From contig MHBE01000003.1 in assembly GCA_001803205.1 (NCBI GenBank), forward strand, positions 1 to 45,230: a stretch of 45,230 nt of DNA, read 5' to 3'. This stretch comes from Lentisphaerae bacterium GWF2_38_69. GTDB taxonomy: Bacteria; Verrucomicrobiota; Lentisphaeria; Victivallales; GWF2-38-69. The notes under the pieces were generated by a model. It was not told the DNA's origin and made no database searches. It saw only the letters and a list, made by a program, of their open reading frames with translations. The stretch's first letter is position 1; each line of letters begins with the position of its first letter. The position numbers were made by a program, and so were the translations under genes. Shown piece by piece: positions 3,787 to 45,230 of this stretch.

Positions 3787-3960
3787 TACTTCCTCCATGA
3801 TTTCTTACATTAAATTTTCTAAAAAGACCGTTTTCCAGCCATTATAAAATAAAGTATTGCTTTTGTCCACACAACTTCAGCAACAAGCTGTTTTACTCCC
3901 AAAGACTAATAAACTTAACTTTCGGGTTTAATAAAAACGCATAAATATTTTATAATAAAT

Positions 3961-4035
3961 GGATTAACATATATATAATGCTATAATAATGTTGTAATTA
4001 CAATACAATTAAAAAGCACTAAATAAAGTTAATCC
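3961..4035 (+). repeat. inverted repeat in the IS4-like leader, copy 1
   Basis: GGATTAAC (3961-3968) and GTTAATCC (4028-4035) are perfectly complementary and the second arm ends 4 bases before the transposase ATG. The second copy of the element has GGCTAATC at 43931-43938 and GATTAGCC at 43865-43872, so pairing is kept although the sequence changed. It could fold in the mRNA and restrain initiation, or be a protein-binding site. Confidence 0.55.
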
Positions 4036-4039
4036 AAAA

Positions 4040-5499
4040 ATGAAAAAGAATAAATTAAGCAATATCAGTTTAACACCAGTAGGGGACAGTTTAAAGGGCG
4101 ATTATACATTTGTTGATAACGAGATTCAGGATTCGATTAAGAAACTAAATTTTTTCCGGCATGTAAAACAATACAGCAAAACCAAGAGAAGCGGATGGAG
4201 CATGGAGTCGACAGTTTATACATTACTTATATGGGTGTACCTGAAAAATGATTCCATAAAAATGTTTTACGAGAAGTGCCTGTTTGTTTTCTTTAAAGGC
4301 GGAAAAGATGTTCTATATGAAACGATGAGGGATGAAGGAACAAACTGGAGGCAGATATCATTTTCTACAGCTAAAGAAATGCCAGCGTAACAGAAAAAGC
4401 CTTTGTAGTTGACGATTCTATAAAAGAACGAAGCGGGAAAAAAGTAGAAGGAATATCAAAACATTTTGAGCACTCTCAAGGGCGCTATGTAATGGGGCAT
4501 CAGATGATAGAACTTGGCCTGGCATTTAAAAATGGGTTTCTGCCTTTGGATCGTCAAATATTCATAGGGGATAAAAAAGCGCATCTGCTCAACAACGCTT
4601 TCAAGGACTCCATAAGTGCTGCAGCCCAGGACTTTAAATGTGCCCTTGAAAAGGATAAGAATGAAATGTTCAGATCTATGCTCCAAAGGACAATTAGAAA
4701 AGGCTTCATGGCTAAGTATTGTCTGGCTGATTCATGGTTTTGCAGCAAAAAGAATATAAGAACGGTAATAGACAATAATCTTACCGGGATACTCAGAACA
4801 AAAAGAAGCAAACTCAATTATTTGTTTAACGGCAAATTATACACCCTAGTTGAATTGTATTTTCTTTTAAGGCGCCGCTTCAGAAAAAACTCACAATGCA
4901 AATGGAAAACATTCAGTGCAGTTGTCAAGATTGACTTGTCCGAGGACATCAAGATACATGACTACATTCAGGTCAAACTTGTATTCAGCGCGCCCAAGGA
5001 TCAGAAAAAAGATCAATGGGCGGCATTTCTATCTACGGATATAAACCTCAGCAATGAAGATGTCTTGAAAGTCTAGGCCATGCGGTGGGGAGTGGAGGTT
5101 TACTTTAAGGAAATAAAGCAGAATATGGGATTTCTAAAAGAACAGTCATGGTCTTATGTTTCTCACTATGCGTCAATCCATCTGACTGCAATACGGTATA
5201 TGCTTTTATTCGATATACTGTTACTGTCGGGAAACTGTTGCTCATTCGGCAGCATGAGAAACGCTTTAACCGGAAAACTTGAGATGCTGACTTTTGCTGC
5301 ATTGCTGTGGGAATTATTCAAAGCTATCATATATGGAGTTCTGGATACATTTAAGGATCTGATTGGCGAAAAAATGTTAAACAAAATCAAAAGCAAGATA
5401 AGCTCTACCATCGAAGAGTTCCTTGAAAAAGCTCTTCAGTTAGATGAAAATTATATTACCAATGAGCTTAGAGCAGAACGATTAGGGGTGTTGAGATGA
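4040..5499 (+). pseudogene. IS4-family transposase, frameshifted and nonsense-mutated
   Basis: DDE transposase in three pieces. The N-terminal part (4040-4390) shifts frame near 4380. The middle frame carries the first catalytic region (FVVDDSIKERSGKK) and the second Asp (YCLADSWF). A TAG at 5074-5076 then interrupts the gene before AMRWGVEVYFKEIKQ. The IS4-family signature is Y(2)R(3)E(6)K, and the TAG sits exactly at the Tyr, so an amber mutation replaced it. The C-terminal helix region runs to 5499. With a frameshift and a stop it should not make active transposase. Confidence 0.88.
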
Positions 5500-17078: not shown

Positions 17079-19187
17079 ATGTCAGAAAAGAGTATTACAT
17101 TCAAAATGGCAGGTGACAGGGAAATAACTATTTCGACCGGTAAACTTGCAAGACTTGCAAATGGCTCCTGCACAGTAAAACAGGGAGACACAATCGTATT
17201 TTCAGCAGCCTGCTCGGGCAAGGCAAAAGAAAATGCTGATTTTCTGCCGCTCCAGGTAGATTACAGAGAAAAATACAGCGCTTCCGGAATTTTCCCCGGC
17301 GGCTTTATAAAAAGAGAAAATAGACCAAGCGACAGGGAAATCCTAATCTGCAGAATGGCAGACAGACCACTTAGACCACTCTTCCCTAATGGATACTTCG
17401 ATGAAGTACAAGTACAGTCAACTCTTTTAAGCGCTGACTTCGTTAATGAACCAGATGTGCTTTCCATACTTTCTGCATCAGTCGCCCTGACTGTTTCCGA
17501 CCTTCCTTTTGAAGGACCTATCGGAGCATTGAGAGTCGCCCTTATAGATGGTAAATTTATAGCTAATCCTACGATTGAAGAAATAAAAAAGAGCTCTCTC
17601 GAGCTCATTTACGCAGGACTCGCAGATAAAATAATCATGATTGAAGGTGATGCAAAAGAGCTTGACGAAGAAACATTCAGGAAAGCCTTTGAATTCGCCA
17701 ATGAACAGGTAAAAATCCAGATTGACGCCCAGCTTGAACTTGCCAAACTCGCAGGCAAGAAAAAATCAACTCCGAAACTTTACACAGTCCCTGCAAAAGT
17801 TAAGAGCCTTGTTACTTCATTCTGTCAGGGAAAACTCGATGAGGACTGTTTTATTCCAGGGAAAGAGGAAAGAAACAATGCTCTTAAACTAATATTCACT
17901 GAAATGCTCGAAAAAGCACGGCCTGAATTCGCCGGACAGGAAGAAGAAACTAAATTGGAATTCCACTTAAGGATGGCTTTCGATGCTGAAGTTCAAAAAA
18001 CAATAAGAGATGCAATCCTTATCAAGGGAAAAAGATCTGATGGAAGAACAGTTGATGACCTTAGGTCTCTTCATGCAGAAACAGGTTTTCTCCCCAGACC
18101 CCACGGTACAGGACTCTTTGAGAGAGGAGAAACACAGGCGCTTGTAATGGCTACACTGGGATCCCCGAAAGACGCTCAGGAATCTGATTCAATAGTAAGC
18201 CCTGAAAGACTTACAAAGAAAACATTTTTCCTTCACTACAACTTTCCCAACTACAGTGTCGGTGAAGTCGGAAGAATCGCAGGTCCAGGCAGAAGGGAAA
18301 TCGGACATGGAAACCTTGCAGAACGCTCTCTGCTGCAGGTTATGCCAGATAAGTACCCATACACTGTCAGATGCGTATCTGAAATCATGGGTTCAAACGG
18401 ATCTACTTCAATGGCTAGCATCTGCGGCGGTTCTCTTGCCCTTATGGACGCAGGGGTTCCAATAAAAGGCCATGTGGCTGGAATTTCATGCGGCCTTATC
18501 AAAGAAGGCGAAAAAGCAGTATTGCTGGCTGATATTATCGGCGCGGAAGACCACTACGGAGATATGGACTTCAAGGTAGCTGGAACAAAAAAAGGCATAA
18601 CAGGGTTTCAGCTTGACCTCAAAATTCCTGGCATATCAATTGATTTGATAATGGAAGGTATGTATAAAAATAAGACTAACAGGGAAAAAATCCTTGATGT
18701 TCTTTATAATTGCATTTCTTCCCCTAAAACAGATCTCAGTCCTTTTGCTCCGAGAATTCATGTAATGAAAATAAGCACTGAAAAAATCGGCGCTCTCATC
18801 GGCCCCGGCGGAAAGATTATTAAAGGTATCTGCGAACTAACAGGCGCACAGATTGATGTAAAAGATGACGGCACAGTAACTATTTTTGCCACCAATAAAA
18901 ATGCCCTTGAAACAGCTTTGGATGAAGTTAACGGCTATACTGCTGAAGTAGAAATCGGAAAGATTTACCGCGGCAAAGTAACAGGTATCAAAGAGTTCGG
19001 AGTATTTGTTGAATTCCTTCCAAACCAGGAAGGGCTTGTTCATATTTCTGAATTAGCAGATTATAGAGTTAACAATGCAGAAGAAATCTGCAAACTTGGT
19101 GACAAGATGACAGTTAAGGTCGTTGGCTTCGATGTAAGAGGCAAAATCAAGCTTAGCAGAAAAGCAGCTCTGGCTGAAATCAAATAA
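17079..19187 (+). CDS. pnp: polynucleotide phosphorylase
   Basis: 3'-5' phosphorolytic exoribonuclease of mRNA decay. The 702-residue protein has the full layout: first RNase PH domain (about 10-140), helical linker (about 150-230), second RNase PH domain (about 315-455, with GSNGSTSMASICGGSLALMD), KH domain with the GxxG loop in LIGPGGKIIKG (about 555-615), and S1 domain (about 620-695, VGKIYRGKVTGIKEFGVFVE). An AGAGG ribosome site precedes the ATG at 7 bases. Likely autoregulated through its structured leader. Confidence 0.97.
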   Translation: MSEKSITFKMAGDREITISTGKLARLANGSCTVKQGDTIVFSAACSGKAKENADFLPLQVDYREKYSASGIFPGGFIKRENRPSDREILICRMADRPLRPLFPNGYFDEVQVQSTLLSADFVNEPDVLSILSASVALTVSDLPFEGPIGALRVALIDGKFIANPTIEEIKKSSLELIYAGLADKIIMIEGDAKELDEETFRKAFEFANEQVKIQIDAQLELAKLAGKKKSTPKLYTVPAKVKSLVTSFCQGKLDEDCFIPGKEERNNALKLIFTEMLEKARPEFAGQEEETKLEFHLRMAFDAEVQKTIRDAILIKGKRSDGRTVDDLRSLHAETGFLPRPHGTGLFERGETQALVMATLGSPKDAQESDSIVSPERLTKKTFFLHYNFPNYSVGEVGRIAGPGRREIGHGNLAERSLLQVMPDKYPYTVRCVSEIMGSNGSTSMASICGGSLALMDAGVPIKGHVAGISCGLIKEGEKAVLLADIIGAEDHYGDMDFKVAGTKKGITGFQLDLKIPGISIDLIMEGMYKNKTNREKILDVLYNCISSPKTDLSPFAPRIHVMKISTEKIGALIGPGGKIIKGICELTGAQIDVKDDGTVTIFATNKNALETALDEVNGYTAEVEIGKIYRGKVTGIKEFGVFVEFLPNQEGLVHISELADYRVNNAEEICKLGDKMTVKVVGFDVRGKIKLSRKAALAEIK

Positions 19188-19307
19188 AGCAAGAGAACTT
19201 GCCATAGAAGCAAATTGTATTTTGCTGAAATTTCCTAAACATCTTATTGTCTGATAAGCTTGAGATAGAATAATTTTAAGCTGTCAGTTCTGATTAGAGG
19301 GAATTTT

Positions 19308-19478
19308 ATGAAACAATTTAAGCTTAAGAATGGCAAATTGCTGACAATCAGGCGCGCTGAAACAGCGGATGCGCCTGATTTGTTCAGACATCTGAAAACA
19401 ATATTTGGTGAATCAGATTTTCTTATCAACGGTATTTTTCACAATGCCTACTCAATGGGATTGCAAATAGATAACTAA
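19308..19478 (+). pseudogene. N-terminal fragment of a GNAT acetyltransferase
   Basis: An open frame of 56 codons with a good TAGAGGG ribosome site begins with a typical GNAT N-terminus, including LLTIRRAETADAPDLF and an FGESDFL segment. It ends after 56 residues, where a complete enzyme would need about 150 or more, so the acetyl-CoA-binding core is missing. The break lies just before the imperfect inverted repeat at 19501-19589, which suggests that an insertion or deletion there removed the rest. Family assignment rests on the short N-terminal motif only. Confidence 0.55.
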
Positions 19479-20151: not shown

Positions 20152-22605
20152 ATGGCAAGAAAGAAAGCAGACTCATCTAAACCGATTGAACAGTATGAAC
20201 ATAAGGACAAGGAGAGGCTGAATAATCCTCCTGTAGGCCTCGTTGACGCCCACACAGATAATGGCGGACAGAAGAAAAAACAATACTCATATGACCCGCA
20301 TCTTGATCCCCAGCTCCAATGGGCAGGGAAGGCTGAACACACCTGTTTTGAAGTCCCGACAGTGAGTTTGCATGTCCATGAACGCATTGACCCAAGGCGC
20401 ATAATAGAATCCGTCAGAAAGGAAGAAACAGGACTCCTCCAACCCAGCCTCTTCGAGGAAACTAAAAAGCCTCTCAGGGAAGCCATTGAATTTTACAAAC
20501 ACAAGGAAAACTGGTCTAACCGCCTTATAGCCGGTGACAGCCTCCTTATCATGAACTCCCTCCTCGAAAAGGAAGGCATGGGCGGTAAAGTACAGATGGT
20601 TTACTTCGACCCTCCCTACGGCATTAAATACGGTTCAAACTTCCAGCCCTTTGTCAATAAACGCGATGTAAAAGACGGCAAGGATGAAGACCTCACAGCC
20701 GAACCAGAAATGATAAAAGCCTTCCGCGATACCTGGGAACTCGGGATTCATTCGTACCTGACATACCTCAGAGACAGGCTACTTCTCGCCAGAGACCTGC
20801 TCGATGAATCCGGCAGCGTCTTTGTCCAGATCAGCGATGAAAATGTACACCATGTCCGCGAAATCATGGACGAAGTGTTCGGCAGAGAGAATTTTGTGAG
20901 CCAAATTGCTTTTCAAACAACCCCATACGCAACAAGTAATTTTCTAGCTCCTGTGTATGACATTATCTTATGGTATGCAAAGGATATTAAATTACTAAAA
21001 TATAGAGCGCTTTTTCTGGAAAAAGAAAAACTGGGAAAGATTGATTTATATAAGTATATTGAAGCTCCAGATGGAACATATTTTAGAACACTTACTTACG
21101 AAGAATTAGAGAATCCAACACTTATTCCAAAAGACTGGAAAAGATTTCAGTCCGTTTCTCTAATATCACAAGGAAAGACATCAACAAATCAAAGCGTTGA
21201 ATTTGAAGGCAAAACATGGGTACCACCTGTAAATAATCACTGGAAAGTAACAGTCGATGGGCTTAAAAATGCTATTAAGCAAAATAGATTTTTTACTACA
21301 GAAAATTCTTTACGCTTTAAAAGTTTTCTGACTGATTTTCCAATTACCATCATACATAATATTTGGAATGATATGATTACAGGTAGCTTTACTGATACAA
21401 AAAAATATGTTGTTCAGACAAACCCTAAAGTCATACAACGCTGTCTTCTCATGACGACCGACCCAGGGGATTTGGTATTGGATATCACCTGCGGAAGCGG
21501 GACGACAGCTTATGTAGCTGAAAGTTGGGGCAGAAGATGGATCACCTGTGACACATCGAGAGTAGCTATTGCCTTGGCAAAACAGAGATTGATGACAGCG
21601 AATTTTGATTATTATGAACTGGCATATCCAAATGAAGGAGTAGGAAGCGGTTTTAAGTACAAGACAGTTCCGCACATTACGCTTAAATCAATTGCAAACA
21701 ACGATCCTCCATCGCAGGAAACTCTTTACGACCAGCCGTTTACTGACAGGAAAAGACAGAGAGTTACCGAACCATTCACCGTCGAAGCAGTTCCGGCTCC
21801 AATAGCAGTGATGAGCGGCGAGGAACTATCCACTATCCACCAACCACTATCCACTTCCATCGCCCGAAGCGGCGAGACTCTCAGGCAGAGCGAATGGAAA
21901 GATGAACTTCTCAGAGCCGGAGTCAGAGCCAAGGGAGGAAAACTAATTGAGTTCACGAGAGTCGAAACTCTGAGCGGAACTCGTTATCTGCAGGCTGAGG
22001 CCGAAACAAAAGAAAATAGTCCGAAACGGGTTCTGGTTTCATTCGGGCCTGAACACGCCCCGCTGGAACAGCGTATGGTAGAACTGGCATTGGAAGAAGC
22101 AGGCCACATGAGACCCAAACCTGATATGATACTTTTCTGCGCTTTTCAGTTTGATGAAGAAGCCAGCAAAGACATTGACGAAACGAACTGGCCGGGAGTT
22201 ACACTGCTCAAAGCCCAGATGAATGCTGACCTGATGACAGATGACCTCAAAAAGAAACGCTCCAGCAATGAAAGTTTCTGGTTAATAGGCCAACCGGATG
22301 TTCAGCTTATAAAACAGTCTGACGGGAAATATGTAGTCGAAGTACTTGGATTTGACTATTATAATCCGAAAACAGGCACAGTTGAGAGCGGAAGCAAAGG
22401 CGATATTGCCATGTGGATGCTCGATACGGATTATGACGGAAGAAGTTTATTTCCGTCACAGGTCTTCTTCCCAATGGCAGGAGCCAAAGAGGGATGGGCG
22501 AGTCTGGCCAAAAACCTCAAAGCTGAAATTGACGAAGAAAAAATCGAAGCATTCAATGGAACTTCTTCCCTCCCGTTCACACCAGACAAGGCCGTTGCAG
22601 TCTAA
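20152..22605 (+). CDS. mod: type III restriction-modification DNA methyltransferase (Mod)
   Basis: Adenine-N6 methyltransferase and recognition subunit. The 817-residue protein has motif IV (FDPPYGIKYGSN, about residue 160) before motif I (LDITCGSGTTAYVAESWGRRW, about 440), the beta-class order of type III Mod. Between them lies the target-recognition region. The C-terminal part (about 520-817) is long and may contact Res. Hand counts per 60-base line fall from 34 and 27 G+C (20761, 20821) to 17 and 16 (20941, 21001) and return to 28 (21541), so the recognition region is compositionally foreign. A short repeat ACTATCCAC occurs three times at 21825-21854 in frame. Confidence 0.88.
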   Translation: MARKKADSSKPIEQYEHKDKERLNNPPVGLVDAHTDNGGQKKKQYSYDPHLDPQLQWAGKAEHTCFEVPTVSLHVHERIDPRRIIESVRKEETGLLQPSLFEETKKPLREAIEFYKHKENWSNRLIAGDSLLIMNSLLEKEGMGGKVQMVYFDPPYGIKYGSNFQPFVNKRDVKDGKDEDLTAEPEMIKAFRDTWELGIHSYLTYLRDRLLLARDLLDESGSVFVQISDENVHHVREIMDEVFGRENFVSQIAFQTTPYATSNFLAPVYDIILWYAKDIKLLKYRALFLEKEKLGKIDLYKYIEAPDGTYFRTLTYEELENPTLIPKDWKRFQSVSLISQGKTSTNQSVEFEGKTWVPPVNNHWKVTVDGLKNAIKQNRFFTTENSLRFKSFLTDFPITIIHNIWNDMITGSFTDTKKYVVQTNPKVIQRCLLMTTDPGDLVLDITCGSGTTAYVAESWGRRWITCDTSRVAIALAKQRLMTANFDYYELAYPNEGVGSGFKYKTVPHITLKSIANNDPPSQETLYDQPFTDRKRQRVTEPFTVEAVPAPIAVMSGEELSTIHQPLSTSIARSGETLRQSEWKDELLRAGVRAKGGKLIEFTRVETLSGTRYLQAEAETKENSPKRVLVSFGPEHAPLEQRMVELALEEAGHMRPKPDMILFCAFQFDEEASKDIDETNWPGVTLLKAQMNADLMTDDLKKKRSSNESFWLIGQPDVQLIKQSDGKYVVEVLGFDYYNPKTGTVESGSKGDIAMWMLDTDYDGRSLFPSQVFFPMAGAKEGWASLAKNLKAEIDEEKIEAFNGTSSLPFTPDKAVAV

Positions 22606-22657
22606 ATAATAGATGCCAGAGGGATAGAAAGTCTAAAGATAATCAAGGGGTAATTTT

Positions 22658-23140
22658 ATGGGACTTGAAGTCATAACAGACGAATTCATTTCTAAACTTA
22701 TAAAGATTAAAAAATCCGTGGAAAACCCTCGAACAAGAAAAAAAAGAGAGTCAGGAAATGAAAGAGCGACCTATACACTCTATGATGAAGAAGGTAACCG
22801 CTACGATTTATATCTCAGGCAGAATTATTATCTAGGGATGTCAGATGATTTTTCCTGCGGCCTTTCATGGTTGATGACTGGCGGAGAATATTTCACACTT
22901 ATAAGATATAATGGCTCTAGCCATATTCACTTTAATAAAATTGAGAGGAATAGACTCAGTTTTATTTGTCATATTCACAAAGCGACTAAAAAGTATCTGG
23001 ATGAAACAGGTATTGCCGATGGATTTGCTGAAGAATCATCCAGATATTCAACTTTAGAAGAAGCTCTATTCTGTTTGATACAGGACTGTAATATAGAAGG
23101 TCTGAATATAAACCCTATGCAAGGAGAATTTAAACTATGA
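22658..23140 (+). CDS. hypothetical protein inside the R-M operon
   Basis: I do not recognise this protein with confidence; it resembles the small hypotheticals found beside DUF1828 genes (possibly DUF6978). It is 160 residues, soluble, with no signal peptide or membrane helix. The N-terminal part is basic (NPRTRKKRES), and the core has alternating beta-like stretches (ATYTLYDEEGNRYDLYLRQN). It overlaps the next gene by 4 bases (ATGA), so the two are translationally coupled. A strand-specific AAGGGG ribosome site precedes its ATG. Its place between mod and res suggests a linked accessory or control function. Confidence 0.75.
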   Translation: MGLEVITDEFISKLIKIKKSVENPRTRKKRESGNERATYTLYDEEGNRYDLYLRQNYYLGMSDDFSCGLSWLMTGGEYFTLIRYNGSSHIHFNKIERNRLSFICHIHKATKKYLDETGIADGFAEESSRYSTLEEALFCLIQDCNIEGLNINPMQGEFKL

Positions 23141-23925
23141 GTACGATATGCAATATAGATGATCTACAGAAAATATTATGCGCCAGCTTTTGCGCTGACA
23201 TAAAAGTGGCCAGAAAAAATGAACACCTCATCAGGGTTGAAACTCCATTTTATTTTCCAGATGGAGATCCATATCAGATATACCTGAAAGAGATATCTAC
23301 GGGCGGTTTCAAAATAACAGATGCCGGACACACGCTTATGCATTTAAGCTATGAAAACGATATAGATGAATTCCAGAAAGGAACAAGAGGCGCGCTATTG
23401 CAGCAAATCCAGCTCGAAACAGGCATGAAGGAAGATGATGGAGAATTCTACCTTGAATCTGCCAGCAATGAAATACATATAAATCTTTTCCGTTTTGGAC
23501 AGGCTCTTACAAAAATCTACGATCTTACTTTTCTGAATCGGACAAGGGTTGAAAATACCTTCTATGAAGATTTAGACCGTTCCATAATCAAAATTGTTGA
23601 TGAAGAAAAAATTATAAGAGACTACATCTTTAAAGGAATGGAAAGTGCAGAAGATTATCCTATTGACTACTACATCAAAGGGAAAAAAGAAGAACCTCTA
23701 TACCTTTTTGGCATTCCGAACAGAGATAAAGCCAGGCTAACTACAATAATTATCGAAAGACTCTTAAGGCATAATGCAAAGTTTGAATCTTTAATAGTTT
23801 TTTCTGATTTTGACTCAGTACCTAAGAATGACTCCAAGCGGCTTATAAATGTTGGAGGAGAAATAATATCTTCACTTGATGCCAAAGATGATTTGAGCAG
23901 AAAAATACTAAAGAGAGTCGCTTGA
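23137..23925 (+). CDS. DUF1828 domain protein inside the R-M operon
   Basis: Protein of 262 residues. The N-terminal half matches DUF1828: TPFYFPDGDPYQIYLKEISTGGFKITDAGHT-like strand pattern with a conserved Asp-Gly-Asp and ITDAGHT (about residues 40-75). The C-terminal half (about 150-262) probably corresponds to the companion DUF1829 region, with FDSVPKNDSKRLINVGG near the end. Molecular function is unknown; these proteins occur in phage- and defence-linked loci. Coupled to the preceding gene by ATGA and followed by res after 9 bases. Confidence 0.72.
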   Translation: MSTICNIDDLQKILCASFCADIKVARKNEHLIRVETPFYFPDGDPYQIYLKEISTGGFKITDAGHTLMHLSYENDIDEFQKGTRGALLQQIQLETGMKEDDGEFYLESASNEIHINLFRFGQALTKIYDLTFLNRTRVENTFYEDLDRSIIKIVDEEKIIRDYIFKGMESAEDYPIDYYIKGKKEEPLYLFGIPNRDKARLTTIIIERLLRHNAKFESLIVFSDFDSVPKNDSKRLINVGGEIISSLDAKDDLSRKILKRVA

Positions 23926-23934
23926 TCTCTTATA

Positions 23935-26748
23935 ATGAAGAAGATAGACAAACTCATAATAAATTCGCCTTATGAAGAACCCGCTCAATATTGGGAGTAT
24001 TTAAGGGAAACAAGAGAGTTTGTACTTAACGAAGGGAGGAGACCGGCTGGCTATATAGTTGCTTCAGAAAGCTCAAAAGCCTTTGATGACCCTGGAGAAT
24101 TCATTGAAATCCCTCTTGTCAATTATATCAGGCCAAAAATCAAAAAGTGGCAGGAAGAGGGTTATCCCGGAGTAACTGGGATAACAAAACGGCTCCTCAC
24201 ACATTGGCAGGATCCAGAAGAGCGCAAAGACCGCAGACTCTTCTTTTGCCAACTGGAAGCCATCGAGACTCTGATCTGGCTTACAGAAGCTCCTGACGCT
24301 GACAAGACTGGAGTCAAAATCCCGGGCGATGGCGGAGATTTCTCTAGATTGTGTAGCAAGATGGCGACAGGTTCAGGAAAAACCATAGTAATGGGAATGC
24401 TTATCGCATGGCAAATTTTAAACAAAATAGCTAACGGTAAAGACACGCGATTTTCAAAAAATGTTTTACTGGTAGCGCCTGGTTTAACTGTAAGAAACCG
24501 TTTAAGCGTATTAAACCCTTTTGATACGGCTAACTACTACGAAGAATTCAACATTGTCCCAAGCGGGCTGATGGAAAACCTCAGGCAGGGAAAAATCAAG
24601 ATTATCAATTGGCATGCTTTAGCCTGGGACAGCGAAGAAAAACTATCTAAAAAGAAAACAGTTGACAAGCGAGGAGCCAAAAGCGATGATGCTTATGTAC
24701 GGGAAGTTTTGGGTGATATGGCCTCCGCCTCCAACTTGATTGTGATTAATGACGAAGCCCATCACGCCTGGAGAGTACCATCGGAAAGCAAAATTAAAGG
24801 CGTAAAGAAAGAAGATATTGAAGAGAGCACCGTCTGGATAGGCGGACTAGACAGGATTCACAGAGCAAGGAATATAATCAAATGTTTTGACATGACCGCT
24901 ACGCCATTTGCGCCTTCAGGAAAAAAAGCCTCTGAGGAAGCTCTTTTCCCATGGATTGTCAGTGACTTTGGATTAAATGACGCTATTGAATCAGGGCTGG
25001 TTAAAACTCCGCGCGTGGTAATAAGAGATGACGGCAATACTGATAACGAATTGCGCTCAAGGCTCTATCATATTTATGCTGACCAAACAGTAAGAGACGA
25101 CATCAATAGAAAGGCAGATGAAAGCGAGCCTCTCCCTGATTTAATTAAAAATGCCTACATCCTCTTGGGAAAGGATTGGAAAGCCACTAAAGATGAATGG
25201 GAAAGAGTCGGTTATAAAATCCCTCCTTCAATGATTACAGTGGCTAACACGACTTTCACATCAGCAAGGATAAAGTATTCTTTTGATCATGACTATTTCG
25301 ATATGAAAATTGCAGGATTGGCAGATTTAATTGCGCCTGATAAAACTCTTCAGATTGACAGCAGCATCCTCGACAAGGCTGAAGCAGAATCCGAAACCAC
25401 TGAAATAGTTTCAAACGAGGATACTGAAGAAGAACAAACAGACGATGCGCCAAAAGAGAAAAAGTTAACTAAGAAGCAACAGGCTGAACTTCTCAGGAAA
25501 ACTGTTGATAGCGTCGGTAAAATTGGGCAGCCCGGAGAACAAATACGCAATGTAATTTCCGTAGGGATGCTAAGCGAAGGCTGGGATGCCAAGACAGTTA
25601 CGCACATCATGGGACTTAGAGCCTTCAGCAGTCAGCTTCTTTGCGAACAGGTCGTCGGCAGAGGTCTGAGACGGACAAGTTACGATGTCGCAGAAGATGG
25701 TTTATTTGAACCTGAATATGTTAATATTTTTGGTGTTCCTTTTACATTCCTTCCTCATGAAGGCGGAGAAGGCTCTCCTCCTCCACCGCCAAAACCAAAG
25801 ACTAAAATAGAATCTATCAAAGAAAAAATTGACCACGAAATAACTTTTCCAAATGTCCTGCGAATAGATCATGTTTATAGAAATGAGCTTGCCCTGGACT
25901 TAAATAAAACAGCGACGCTTGACCTTGATCCTTATAAGTCTATTACTCAAGCTGAACTTGCGGCTATCATCGCTGGAAAGCCCAATCCTGCCGCGCTGAC
26001 AGAAATTGACCTGAAAGAGATTGGCGAAAAATTCCGCTTGCAATCAATTATATTCAAAATCGCTTCAACAATTTATAATTCTGAAAAAAAAACGGACTGG
26101 AAAGGAAACAAGGAATCATTTCTTGTTCAACTAATCGGTTTGATAGAAAAATTTATCCTTTCAGGCAAAATCCTAATCAAAGATCCTCTATTTAATCAGG
26201 ATGAAACTAGAAAGAGAGTCCTGATTATGCTTAATATGAACAAGGTCATTCAGCATATATGGAATGAGATCAAAGCAGAAAACACAAAACACATCACTCC
26301 GGTGTTTGATAAAGAACATCCTATCCGCTCCACATCTGACATTCGAACATGGTGGACAAGCAAACCTTGCGAAAACTTCAGTAAATCTCATGTGAACTTT
26401 GTAGTTTTCGACAGCAAGTGGGAATACATGGAAGCAAAGACTATCAATGAATCAGATTATGTTAACTCATTTGTCAAAAATGATCACCTTAATTTTGTAG
26501 TCTACTACAATTGTCAGGGAATCATTAGAAGATATTTTCCCGACTTTATAATCAAACTTAAAAATGAATCATATCTGATACTTGAGACTAAAGGCCAAGA
26601 TACTGAAAATGACAAAAATAAAAGAGCTTTCCTTGATGAATGGTGCAGAGCTGTTAATCAGCATGGAGGTTTTGGCAGATGGCTATGGAATGTCTCATTT
26701 AATCCGAATGATCTAAATGATATTTTAAGAAAGGCTTGCGAACCTTAA
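23935..26748 (+). CDS. res: type III restriction enzyme subunit Res (helicase-nuclease)
   Basis: ATP-dependent translocase and nuclease that cuts unmodified DNA with Mod. The 937-residue protein has superfamily 2 helicase motifs: Walker A MATGSGKTIVMGM (about 140), DEAH box INDEAHHAW (about 280), DMTATP (about 323), and motif V/VI SEGWDAKTVTH and QVVGRGLRR (about 550-580). Near the C-terminus is the nuclease core YFPDFIIKLKNESYLILETKG, i.e. PD...ExK (about 870-890). The N-terminus (INSPYEEPAQYW) resembles the BPTD_3080-type restriction enzymes. No clear ribosome site is visible, so translation probably depends on the gene before it. Confidence 0.9.
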   Translation: MKKIDKLIINSPYEEPAQYWEYLRETREFVLNEGRRPAGYIVASESSKAFDDPGEFIEIPLVNYIRPKIKKWQEEGYPGVTGITKRLLTHWQDPEERKDRRLFFCQLEAIETLIWLTEAPDADKTGVKIPGDGGDFSRLCSKMATGSGKTIVMGMLIAWQILNKIANGKDTRFSKNVLLVAPGLTVRNRLSVLNPFDTANYYEEFNIVPSGLMENLRQGKIKIINWHALAWDSEEKLSKKKTVDKRGAKSDDAYVREVLGDMASASNLIVINDEAHHAWRVPSESKIKGVKKEDIEESTVWIGGLDRIHRARNIIKCFDMTATPFAPSGKKASEEALFPWIVSDFGLNDAIESGLVKTPRVVIRDDGNTDNELRSRLYHIYADQTVRDDINRKADESEPLPDLIKNAYILLGKDWKATKDEWERVGYKIPPSMITVANTTFTSARIKYSFDHDYFDMKIAGLADLIAPDKTLQIDSSILDKAEAESETTEIVSNEDTEEEQTDDAPKEKKLTKKQQAELLRKTVDSVGKIGQPGEQIRNVISVGMLSEGWDAKTVTHIMGLRAFSSQLLCEQVVGRGLRRTSYDVAEDGLFEPEYVNIFGVPFTFLPHEGGEGSPPPPPKPKTKIESIKEKIDHEITFPNVLRIDHVYRNELALDLNKTATLDLDPYKSITQAELAAIIAGKPNPAALTEIDLKEIGEKFRLQSIIFKIASTIYNSEKKTDWKGNKESFLVQLIGLIEKFILSGKILIKDPLFNQDETRKRVLIMLNMNKVIQHIWNEIKAENTKHITPVFDKEHPIRSTSDIRTWWTSKPCENFSKSHVNFVVFDSKWEYMEAKTINESDYVNSFVKNDHLNFVVYYNCQGIIRRYFPDFIIKLKNESYLILETKGQDTENDKNKRAFLDEWCRAVNQHGGFGRWLWNVSFNPNDLNDILRKACEP

Positions 26749-43938: not shown

Positions 43939-44000
43939 AATTATATATTAAATATTTATATCATTATTTTAAATCAGAAAGTTGAGTAATAAATGTGTCC

Positions 44001-44190
44001 GCAAACCACTCTTGCCTTTGAAACGGGCTTCAATGCCCAAGATGGCTGTCCGGTTTTAAGCGGAACACGGTAGCAGAAGACGGGCTTAATCTACCAAACG
44101 GGATACCGTAAAGATTCCCTTAGGGACGGACAACTCCGTCTTCTGTGATTCTTTCCCAAGCGTCCAAGGGAAAGAACTCTACCGAAAATA
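44001..44190 (+). ncRNA. HEARO/omega-RNA-like structured RNA (IscB-type), no iscB gene present
   Basis: Dense nested pairing: CTTG (44011) with CAAG (44038) around GGGC-TTCAAT-GCCC, TCCG with CGGA, CGGTA (44068) with TACCG (44104), a perfect 10-bp stem CAGAAGACGG (44074-44083) with CCGTCTTCTG (44136-44145), ACGG-GATA-CCGT, TCCC-TTA-GGGA, and a 9-bp stem TTCTTTCCC (44149-44157) with GGGAAAGAA (44168-44176). Unpaired-looking conserved-type strings such as GCCTTTGAAAC and CTTAATCTACC resemble, from memory, the HEARO (omega) RNAs that lie just upstream of iscB. An iscB gene should follow on the plus strand within about 100 bases, but none is seen. Alternative: another transposon-end or ribozyme-like RNA. 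Confidence 0.5.
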
Positions 44191-44271
44191 CTACTTATTA
44201 ACAACATCAACATAATAAATAAAGAAAAAGTTAACAAAAAGAAATTACTGATAATACTGAATCTAACATTT

Positions 44272-44372
44272 GCCTGTTTTACACAGGCTACTAACTTACA
44301 AGGGACGGCTCCACGCAGAGCGTGGCAAGCTCCGGAGTTTATAACGTTGTAGAGCCGCAACATTTTGCGGCT
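44272..44372. repeat. cluster of perfect hairpins downstream of the RNA
   Basis: Three perfect stems occur close together: GCCTGT/ACAGGC (44272-44288), CCACGC-AGA-GCGTGG (44311-44325) and AGCCGCAA-CATT-TTGCGGCT (44353-44372). CTCCGGAG lies between the last two. A fourth, CGTATC/GATACG with inner CGTT/AACG, lies near 44482-44508. None is followed by a T run, so they are not standard terminators. They may be subterminal hairpins of a mobile element's right end. The remainder of 43990-44758 has no gene I can support. Confidence 0.5.
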
Positions 44373-44758
44373 GTGATTGATGAGACGCAAAATCTAGCTG
44401 GTGTGCAGTTCCCAGACGCTAAACTCAGAGGGTGTCCCTAGCTTTCCGAAAAAACATTTTACAGACCTCGCATTAAAAAACCGTATCCCGGCGTTGTAAA
44501 ACGATACGAATGTGTACTACCCATCCCCGGGCTCGCTTTCATTGCTGTTAAGCCAAAGTAAAAGCCCTACCTACTCCATATTTGCAACCGCGGGCCTTTC
44601 TGGTTATGTTTCAAACGGTCTTAAAGTGTGTGTTTTCGTGCATTGCGTATTCATATTAGCCCCTTTGTCACCTCCTATCTGCGTTACTAGCCGGATAATA
44701 CTAATTATGTGGCAGCGGTGCAAGATATGGATTGCCTTCTGGGGATGTTAAAAAAACC

Positions 44759-45230
44759 TTAAAACCATTGGGTGGTTGTTGCGCATCCATTCCTTAACCA
44801 CATATTTATGTATTTGGCCTCCTGTATTGCAATTTCGTCTGGTGACAACTCGCGTCCGTAATTGGGGACTAATAACTGTCTTAAAATCTGCGATCCTTTC
44901 GGATGCATGTCGTTTTGTTTGCCTAAAGACGCGACCATCCCCCCCCGAGGGCTGATGTTTATGGCCTGTTGGAATTGCTCGCGGGTGTCAAAACTGTCGG
45001 CCGTTGTTTGAGTATAAATTATATCCTCCCTTCTAAAGTCGGTTAATGGATTCAATATGCCTCGGGCTTTTATTACATAGCCGGGTGGAAAACACTTTTC
45101 TCTCATTTCGAAGATGCCGTAAGTGGGATACCAGTCGGCTGCTATTTTTTCACGTGGCATAGATGTCCCTGTAGATCTGTAATACGGTTGACCATCGATC
45201 ACCGTAAATGCTCTTTTTCCTTTGTAGATT
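44759..45230 (-). CDS. unrecognised protein, partial (N-terminus beyond the window)
   Basis: An open frame runs from the window edge to a TAA at 44761-44759, about 157 codons visible; a GTG at 45202 could be an internal start, but the frame is open upstream (YKGKRAFT), so I treat it as partial. I do not recognise a family. It has YYRSTGTSMPREKIAADWYP near the start and a C-terminal ELSPDEIAIQEAKYINMWL helix; no signal peptide or membrane helix. Base composition looks richer in GC than the neighbouring insertion-sequence region, so it may be transferred DNA or a different assembly segment. Confidence 0.5.
   Translation of the reverse strand, partial: IYKGKRAFTVIDGQPYYRSTGTSMPREKIAADWYPTYGIFEMREKCFPPGYVIKARGILNPLTDFRREDIIYTQTTADSFDTREQFQQAINISPRGGMVASLGKQNDMHPKGSQILRQLLVPNYGRELSPDEIAIQEAKYINMWLRNGCATTTQWF

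What the first reader, a model, noticed from the sequence alone, without database searches (positions are those of the whole stretch)
44001..44420. Orphan omega-RNA-like structure without an iscB gene
Seen: about 190 bases with at least seven nested perfect stems, including a 10-bp and a 9-bp stem, starting directly beside the end of a truncated IS4-like element (43980). Known: HEARO/omega RNA lies upstream of iscB and carries its guide at the 5' end from flanking DNA. Inference: this may be an omega RNA whose nuclease gene has been lost, possibly used in trans by an IscB elsewhere. The guide would then come from bases just before about 44000.
Basis: partly seen in the sequence, partly recalled or inferred. 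Interest (0 to 1): 0.8.

Follow-up and report, generated by a model that had tools for sequence, protein, structure and literature searches.

The report
Orphaned IS110 bridge RNA
The folded RNA is real, but it is not an omega RNA: it is the "bridge RNA" that guides a jumping gene of the IS110 family, read on the opposite strand; it still carries the guide for the site where it sits, but its recombinase gene is gone, so it is most likely a recently decapitated fossil of a known kind of RNA-guided element.

Summary
In detail: 43995-44187 folds far better than shuffles and contains the 10-bp and 9-bp stems. The omega-RNA reading fails: no Rfam/HEARO match, no IscB RRXRR-domain hit in the genome, and real HEARO RNAs from the same phylum look different.

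A covariance model of the window RNA found full-length relatives in related (Lentisphaeria) genomes. In most loci the RNA lies just upstream of an IS110 recombinase on the recombinase's strand, so the window RNA is on the minus strand (44187->43995). Across 16 distinct sequences 92% of pair cells are kept, with double changes in 41 of 48 pairs. Layout matches the E. coli IS621 bridge RNA: 5' stem-loop, target-binding loop, donor-binding loop.

The left target guide (CCGUCCCU) equals the flank at the predicted left end (CCGTCCCT|TGTAAGTTAG, 44301/44300; core CT). That flank is the 3' end of a dispersed repeat; 14 uninterrupted CCGTCCCT|ACC sites exist in this genome, and the right target guide (GGUAG) fits CT-ACC. 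The recombinase is missing: an IS4-like remnant ends 7 nt from the RNA, and no IS110 gene remains in the assembly.

Known kind, new (decayed) member. Expression untested.

The parts
43995..44187 (-). IS110-type bridge RNA (modelled region; the true 5' end is probably up to ~10 nt inside 44187)
   Evidence: CM hits to relatives directly upstream of and co-directional with IS110 recombinases; covariation
44149..44176 (-). 5' stem-loop of the bridge RNA (9-bp stem)
   Evidence: helix 2, 8 of 9 pairs with double changes
44074..44145 (-). target-binding loop closed by the 10-bp stem CAGAAGACGG/CCGTCTTCTG
   Evidence: helix 3, 96.8% paired, 8 of 10 pairs with double changes
44122..44129 (-). left target guide CCGUCCCU, identical to the left target plus CT core at 44301-44308
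44091..44095 (-). right target guide core GGUAG (extended GUUUGGUAG from 44099), complementary to CT-ACC
43995..44068 (-). donor-binding loop with closing stems; left donor guide CCAUCU (44040-44045); right donor guide GGCAAG (44011-44016)
   Evidence: helices 5-9; similarity to the IS621 donor loop
43988..44300 (-). remaining left end (LE) of the IS110 element, starting TGTAAGTTAG at 44300
   Evidence: LE of relatives starts TGTAT(R)TTA at about 100-170 nt before the RNA; window 113 nt
44301..44302 (-). CT core dinucleotide at the target/element junction
   Evidence: CT core shown from a filled site and an uninterrupted copy of its target repeat in G048 (L045 vs L046)
44301..44346 (-). left half of the target: 3' end of a dispersed repeat (GTGGAGCCGTCCCT)
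   Evidence: copies elsewhere in the genome
43372..43987 (-). truncated IS4-like element lying where the IS110 recombinase should begin (expected start about 43958-43965)
   Evidence: 73% identical to the copy at 3913-4492; RNA-to-start distance in relatives 29-37 nt

Best explanation
The structure is the bridge RNA in the left end of an IS110-group (IS621-like) insertion sequence that inserted at the CT core in the 3' end of a dispersed repeat (CCGTCC-CT-ACC). In an intact element the RNA binds the DEDD recombinase. One internal loop pairs with the target (left guide with the bottom strand, right guide with the top strand) and the other with the element's own joined ends, and the recombinase exchanges strands at CT. 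Here an IS4-like element lies between the RNA and the expected recombinase start, and the recombinase gene and right end are gone. The copy is therefore almost certainly immobile: a solo bridge RNA that may or may not still be transcribed. Shown here by sequence: family, strand, loops, guide-target match, missing gene. Inferred: RNA production, recombinase binding, and the order of events in the decay.
For: Full-length relatives with the same fold. A recombinase-first search gives 52 loci, 17 of which carry the RNA, always on the recombinase strand and immediately upstream. Recombinase in the expected place in 22 of 30 RNA loci. The true-strand model scores higher than the antisense model for most homologues, e.g. 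73.0 vs 61.7 and 61.0 vs 42.7 bits. Covariation: double changes in 41 of 48 pairs, 92.3% of cells paired vs 40-53% when slid, 0/500 shuffles. Guide match of at least 8/9 at the element's own junction in 10 of 23 elements vs 8 of 506 mismatched pairings, 0/5000 permutations; the window is one of the 10. Filled versus uninterrupted repeat in G048 gives core CT and donor ACCATCT|TGTAT. Target repeat copies. IS621 comparison. Rules from PMC11208160.
Against: No recombinase in the window itself, so the cis link rests on relatives. Right end and right target are lost, so left donor and right target pairing cannot be checked in place. The window left end lacks the upstream hairpin (CGAGAATGGG...CTCGTCGGAG) that many relatives share. 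The first 10 nt of the presumed left end (TGTAAGTTAG) also occur beside one dispersed repeat copy (L006), so the exact boundary could be disputed by some bases. No expression data.
Confidence: 0.96

Rival explanations
1. It is an omega (HEARO) RNA whose iscB/isrB gene was lost, with a guide taken from flanking DNA at its 5' end.
For: Highly structured orphan RNA beside a mobile element.
Against: No meaningful Rfam match at E<10. No HEARO hit in the own genome, while the same search finds true HEAROs in two other genomes of the phylum whose sequence is unlike it. No RRXRR hit in the own genome (weak control). Relatives adjoin IS110 recombinases.
Confidence: 0.01
2. It is an orphan bridge RNA kept by selection and used in trans, by a recombinase from another IS110 element or in a host function.
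For: All helices are intact. Bridge RNAs work in trans in engineered assays (PMC11208160). Five other loci without recognisable recombinase exist.
Against: No IS110 recombinase in the 95%-complete genome by PF01548, PF02371 or a clade profile, only a 30-residue scrap. Single copy. The promoter-like motif of relatives (TTGACA-17-TACGGT) is degenerate here. Intact helices are also expected after recent loss.
Confidence: 0.03
3. The RNA is a bridge RNA, but its orphan state is an artefact: the recombinase is present in the organism and missing only because of mis-assembly or incompleteness.
For: Metagenome-type draft, 66 contigs, 95% complete. The feature lies 1 kb from the contig end.
Against: The IS4-like piece at the junction has only one other copy, 73% identical, so it is a poor source of mis-joins. 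No recombinase on any contig.
Confidence: 0.1
4. It is a bundle of repetitive palindromes of the genome with no RNA function.
For: Dispersed palindromic repeats lie next to it.
Against: The RNA part is single-copy. Compensatory changes across genomes and position before recombinases.
Confidence: 0.01

Closest known systems
IS621 bridge RNA (IS110 group), Escherichia coli
   Same: 5' stem-loop, then target-binding loop, then donor-binding loop; CT core; LTG identical to the target top strand, RTG complementary to it; donor loop AAACCGGACAG...GCAAG..UGGUUU; target is the end of a repetitive extragenic element followed by AC; RNA upstream of the recombinase (PMC11208160)
   Different: Low sequence identity (local score reached by 3 of 1000 shuffles). 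In this clade the RNA begins about 100-170 nt inside the left end, with a predicted internal promoter; in the window the recombinase and right end are lost
IS110-group elements of Lentisphaeria and relatives (L044, L045, L050, L056; Oligosphaera ethanolica L063-L068)
   Same: Same covariance model, same strand and position, LE starting TGTAT, own-target guides
   Different: Mostly with recombinase; many carry an extra hairpin in the left end that the window lacks
Omega RNA / HEARO (IscB, IS200/IS605-type)
   Same: Structured non-coding RNA guiding a transposon-encoded protein; orphan copies conceivable
   Different: No covariance-model match; no iscB link; guides lie in two internal loops, bispecific, rather than at a 5' end
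IS1111-group bridge/seek RNA
   Same: Bispecific RNA of DEDD recombinases
   Different: Lies downstream of the gene, in the right end; here it is upstream, in the left end

Membership tests
IS110-group bridge RNA | RNA lies in the left end, directly upstream of and co-directional with a DEDD (PF01548/PF02371) recombinase | tested here: met
   Met in relatives: 17 recombinase-found loci and 22 of 30 RNA-found loci. In the window the gene is missing.
IS110-group bridge RNA | Two-loop architecture with conserved secondary structure | tested here: met
IS110-group bridge RNA | Left target guide identical to the flank ending in the CT core | tested here: met
   Window 8/9 including CT at 44301; clade-wide permutation test
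IS110-group bridge RNA | Right target guide complementary to the right target | tested here: inconclusive
   Right flank lost in the window. GGUAG fits CT-ACC of 14 uninterrupted repeat ends; in L044 CACAGAG fits CTCTGTG.
IS110-group bridge RNA | Donor guides match the element's own joined ends | tested here: inconclusive
   Right end lost. Left donor guide CCAUCU matches the ACCATCT ends of relatives; right donor guide GGCAAG pairs CTTG plus G.T.
IS110-group bridge RNA | RNA is expressed and bound by its recombinase | not testable with these tools
   needs small-RNA sequencing and binding assays
Omega RNA (HEARO, RF02033) | Match to the HEARO covariance model | tested here: not met
Omega RNA (HEARO, RF02033) | Association with iscB/isrB | tested here: not met
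   Relatives adjoin IS110; no RRXRR hit in the own genome (control genomes silent)
IS1111-group bridge RNA | RNA in the right end, downstream of the recombinase | tested here: not met
   RNA upstream in all loci with a recombinase in place

The most novel reading that the evidence does not exclude
A solo bridge RNA maintained without its recombinase, still transcribed and able to steer a visiting IS110 recombinase (or to act as a host RNA) at the genome's dispersed repeats, as one of a class of solo bridge RNAs in Lentisphaeria.
Probability: 0.03. Interest if true: 0.75.

Novelty: new member of a known kind. Interest (0 to 1): 0.35.

Why it matters
It shows that bridge RNAs are recognisable de novo, without their gene, from fold plus a guide that matches the flank. 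It documents a clade of IS621-like bridge RNAs in Lentisphaeria that Rfam 15 does not cover, with readable target guides. It gives another case of an IS110 element aimed at a genome's own repetitive extragenic elements through its guide. The window copy itself is probably dead.

Tried and rejected
Rfam at gathering and relaxed thresholds: nothing meaningful. HEARO and RRXRR searches: nothing in this genome. blastn of the region in phages, plasmids and 149 relatives: nothing, the RNA is too diverged for DNA similarity. tRNA/tmRNA scan: nothing. The downstream 156-aa ORF as a possible partner: no relatives. Considered from appearance and dropped once the IS110 link appeared: integron attC site, single-strand replication origin, retron RNA, group I/II intron. 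Laying out the whole genome was not available.

Full report
Observation. The region 43995-44187 is strongly structured: -68.1 kcal/mol on the + strand for 43990-44200 (z -3.7, no shuffle as low), and -74.4 on the minus strand for 43995-44187 (z -3.8). The RNA part is single-copy in its genome, a 3.1-Mb draft of 66 contigs in which the window is the whole of contig 3.

Not an omega RNA. cmscan against all 4227 Rfam families gives nothing at gathering score, and only a chance snoRNA hit at E 4.9 elsewhere in the stretch. The HEARO model finds nothing in this genome but rings in two other genomes of the phylum, whose sequences are plainly different. RRXRR, the IscB N-terminal domain, is not found in this genome; the control genomes were silent too, so this alone is weak.

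Relatives. A covariance model of the single window sequence (R1) found seven full-length relatives at E 1e-11 to 1e-5 in six other genomes of the same order or class. Reading those loci showed IS110-family genes beside several of the RNAs, confirmed by PF01548 and PF02371. The recombinase follows the RNA on the strand complementary to my model, so the true RNA is the reverse complement. Start codons lie 29-37 nt after the RNA.

Independent test. Searching 84,980 named genomes with an alignment of three recombinases returned 52 loci, mainly Lentisphaeria/Victivallales, with Oligosphaera, Hydrogenedentes and others. The RNA model hits 17 of them, always in the same position, upstream and co-directional with the recombinase. 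A true-strand model (R2) gave higher scores than R1 for most homologues, for example 73.0 vs 61.7 bits for L044 and 61.0 vs 42.7 for L055. On 16 distinct sequences, 92.3% of cells pair (40-53% when slid), 41 of 48 pairs show changes on both sides, and 0 of 500 shuffles reach any measure. The alignment was fitted to the structure, which inflates the absolute figures, but the slid controls fall by about half. A multi-sequence model (R3) finds 36 matches in 26 of 198 genomes of the class. In 22 of 30 readable loci a recombinase (some truncated) stands in place. Six with room downstream lack it, among them the window, L135 and L138; two more are cut by contig ends.

Mechanism, from anatomy. Durrant et al. 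(PMC11208160; [quoted passage not shown] In G048 one element (L045) interrupts a repeat that is uninterrupted in L046...CCTTTCCT|TGTATATTAC ... AAACCATCT|CAAAAGGGC against ...CCTTTCCTCAAAAGGGC. The core is CT and the donor is ACCATCT|TGTAT. Its loop holds CCUUUCCU, the left target. In the window, read on the minus strand, the same arrangement is ...GTGGAGCCGTCCCT|TGTAAGTTAG..., with CCGUCCCU in the loop (8 of 9 counting one further position), 113 nt before the RNA, against 114 nt in L045 and L099. Over 23 elements with a TGTA left end, 10 have at least 8/9 identity between loop and own flank, against 8 of 506 mismatched pairings, some of which are near-identical elements; no permutation of 5000 reaches this. 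The right guide GGUAG asks for CT-ACC, and 14 uninterrupted repeat ends in this genome read CCGTCCCT|ACC. The donor loop resembles that of IS621 (AAACCGGACAG identical; local similarity reached by 3 of 1000 shuffles). I recalled the IS621 sequence from memory; it was then found at 100% identity in E. coli, immediately before the gene annotated as IS621 transposase.

Loss of the gene. The IS4-like remnant ends at about 43987, 7 nt from the RNA and before the place where relatives start their recombinase. Its only other copy in the genome is 73% identical, at 3913-4492 of the same contig, so a false join through this piece is unlikely. No IS110 recombinase is found by PF01548, PF02371 or the clade profile, except a 30-residue C-terminal scrap on contig 35. 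The helices are intact, which suggests recent loss, while the promoter-like motif of relatives (TTGACA-17-TACGGT) is degenerate here (read by eye).

Uncertain points. No expression data. The right end is lost, so right target and donor pairing cannot be seen in place. The ten bases TGTAAGTTAG also occur beside repeat copy L006, which may be chance. The window left end lacks the extra hairpin of many relatives.

Verdict. The thing is a solo IS110 bridge RNA of the IS621 type. It works like, and by the tests possible belongs to, the IS110-group bridge RNAs; it fails the defining tests of omega RNA and of the IS1111 group. New member of a known kind. I found no paper in the library that combines IS110 bridge RNAs with Lentisphaerota, but thousands of IS110 bridge RNAs were predicted in 2024 (PMC11208160), and I did not see the full list, so I claim no more.

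Noticed in passing
L045, L047, L049, L050, L053, L056, L061, L099, L137, L157 (upstream of the bridge RNA): A second conserved hairpin in the left end of many relatives, with apical motif CGAGAATGGG...CTCGTCGGAG on a variable stem, between the element end and the promoter-like motif; absent in the window. Function unknown; possibly recombinase binding or regulation.
   Followed up: partly
window 44759-45229 (-): 156-aa open frame running off the contig end with no Pfam match and no relative in phages, plasmids, viral contigs or 59 related genomes; the DNA around it has higher G+C than the neighbouring contig.
   Followed up: partly
window 19186-19390 (+): Very strong fold (z -6.6) just after a polynucleotide phosphorylase-like gene, with a long imperfect inverted repeat spanning the start of the next frame; no Rfam match.
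   Followed up: no
window 44301-44437 and L002-L018: Family of dispersed palindromic repeats (AGGGACGGCTCCACGCAGAGCGTGGCAAGCTCCGGAGTTTATAACG...), composite and mosaic, present at many places in this genome; one end is the IS110 target.
   Followed up: partly
L017 from about 1533: A sequence that looks like the 5' part of a group II intron interrupts a copy of the dispersed repeat.
   Followed up: no
L063-L068 and G143:C1: Oligosphaera ethanolica carries at least five near-identical recombinase loci of this IS110 clade with equal-scoring bridge RNAs; genome G143 has nine RNA copies. Good intact systems for experiments.
   Followed up: partly
L135 (L047), L138 (L048), L150, L153, L154: Other bridge RNAs of this family without a recognisable recombinase downstream (L047 keeps what looks like a frameshifted start), so solo bridge RNAs recur in the class.
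   Followed up: partly
L103 (G000:C35:41989-42078): 30-residue C-terminal scrap of an IS110 recombinase, the only trace of the family's protein in this genome.
   Followed up: partly
window 44099-44109 and 44480-44490: 11-nt near-perfect inverted repeat (CGGGATACCGT / ACCGTATCCCG) linking the target-binding loop hairpin to DNA beyond the repeat; unexplained, may be chance.
   Followed up: no
window 20152-26748 (+): DNA methylase and ResIII-type helicase/endonuclease genes with two small genes between them, resembling a type III restriction-modification system.
   Followed up: no
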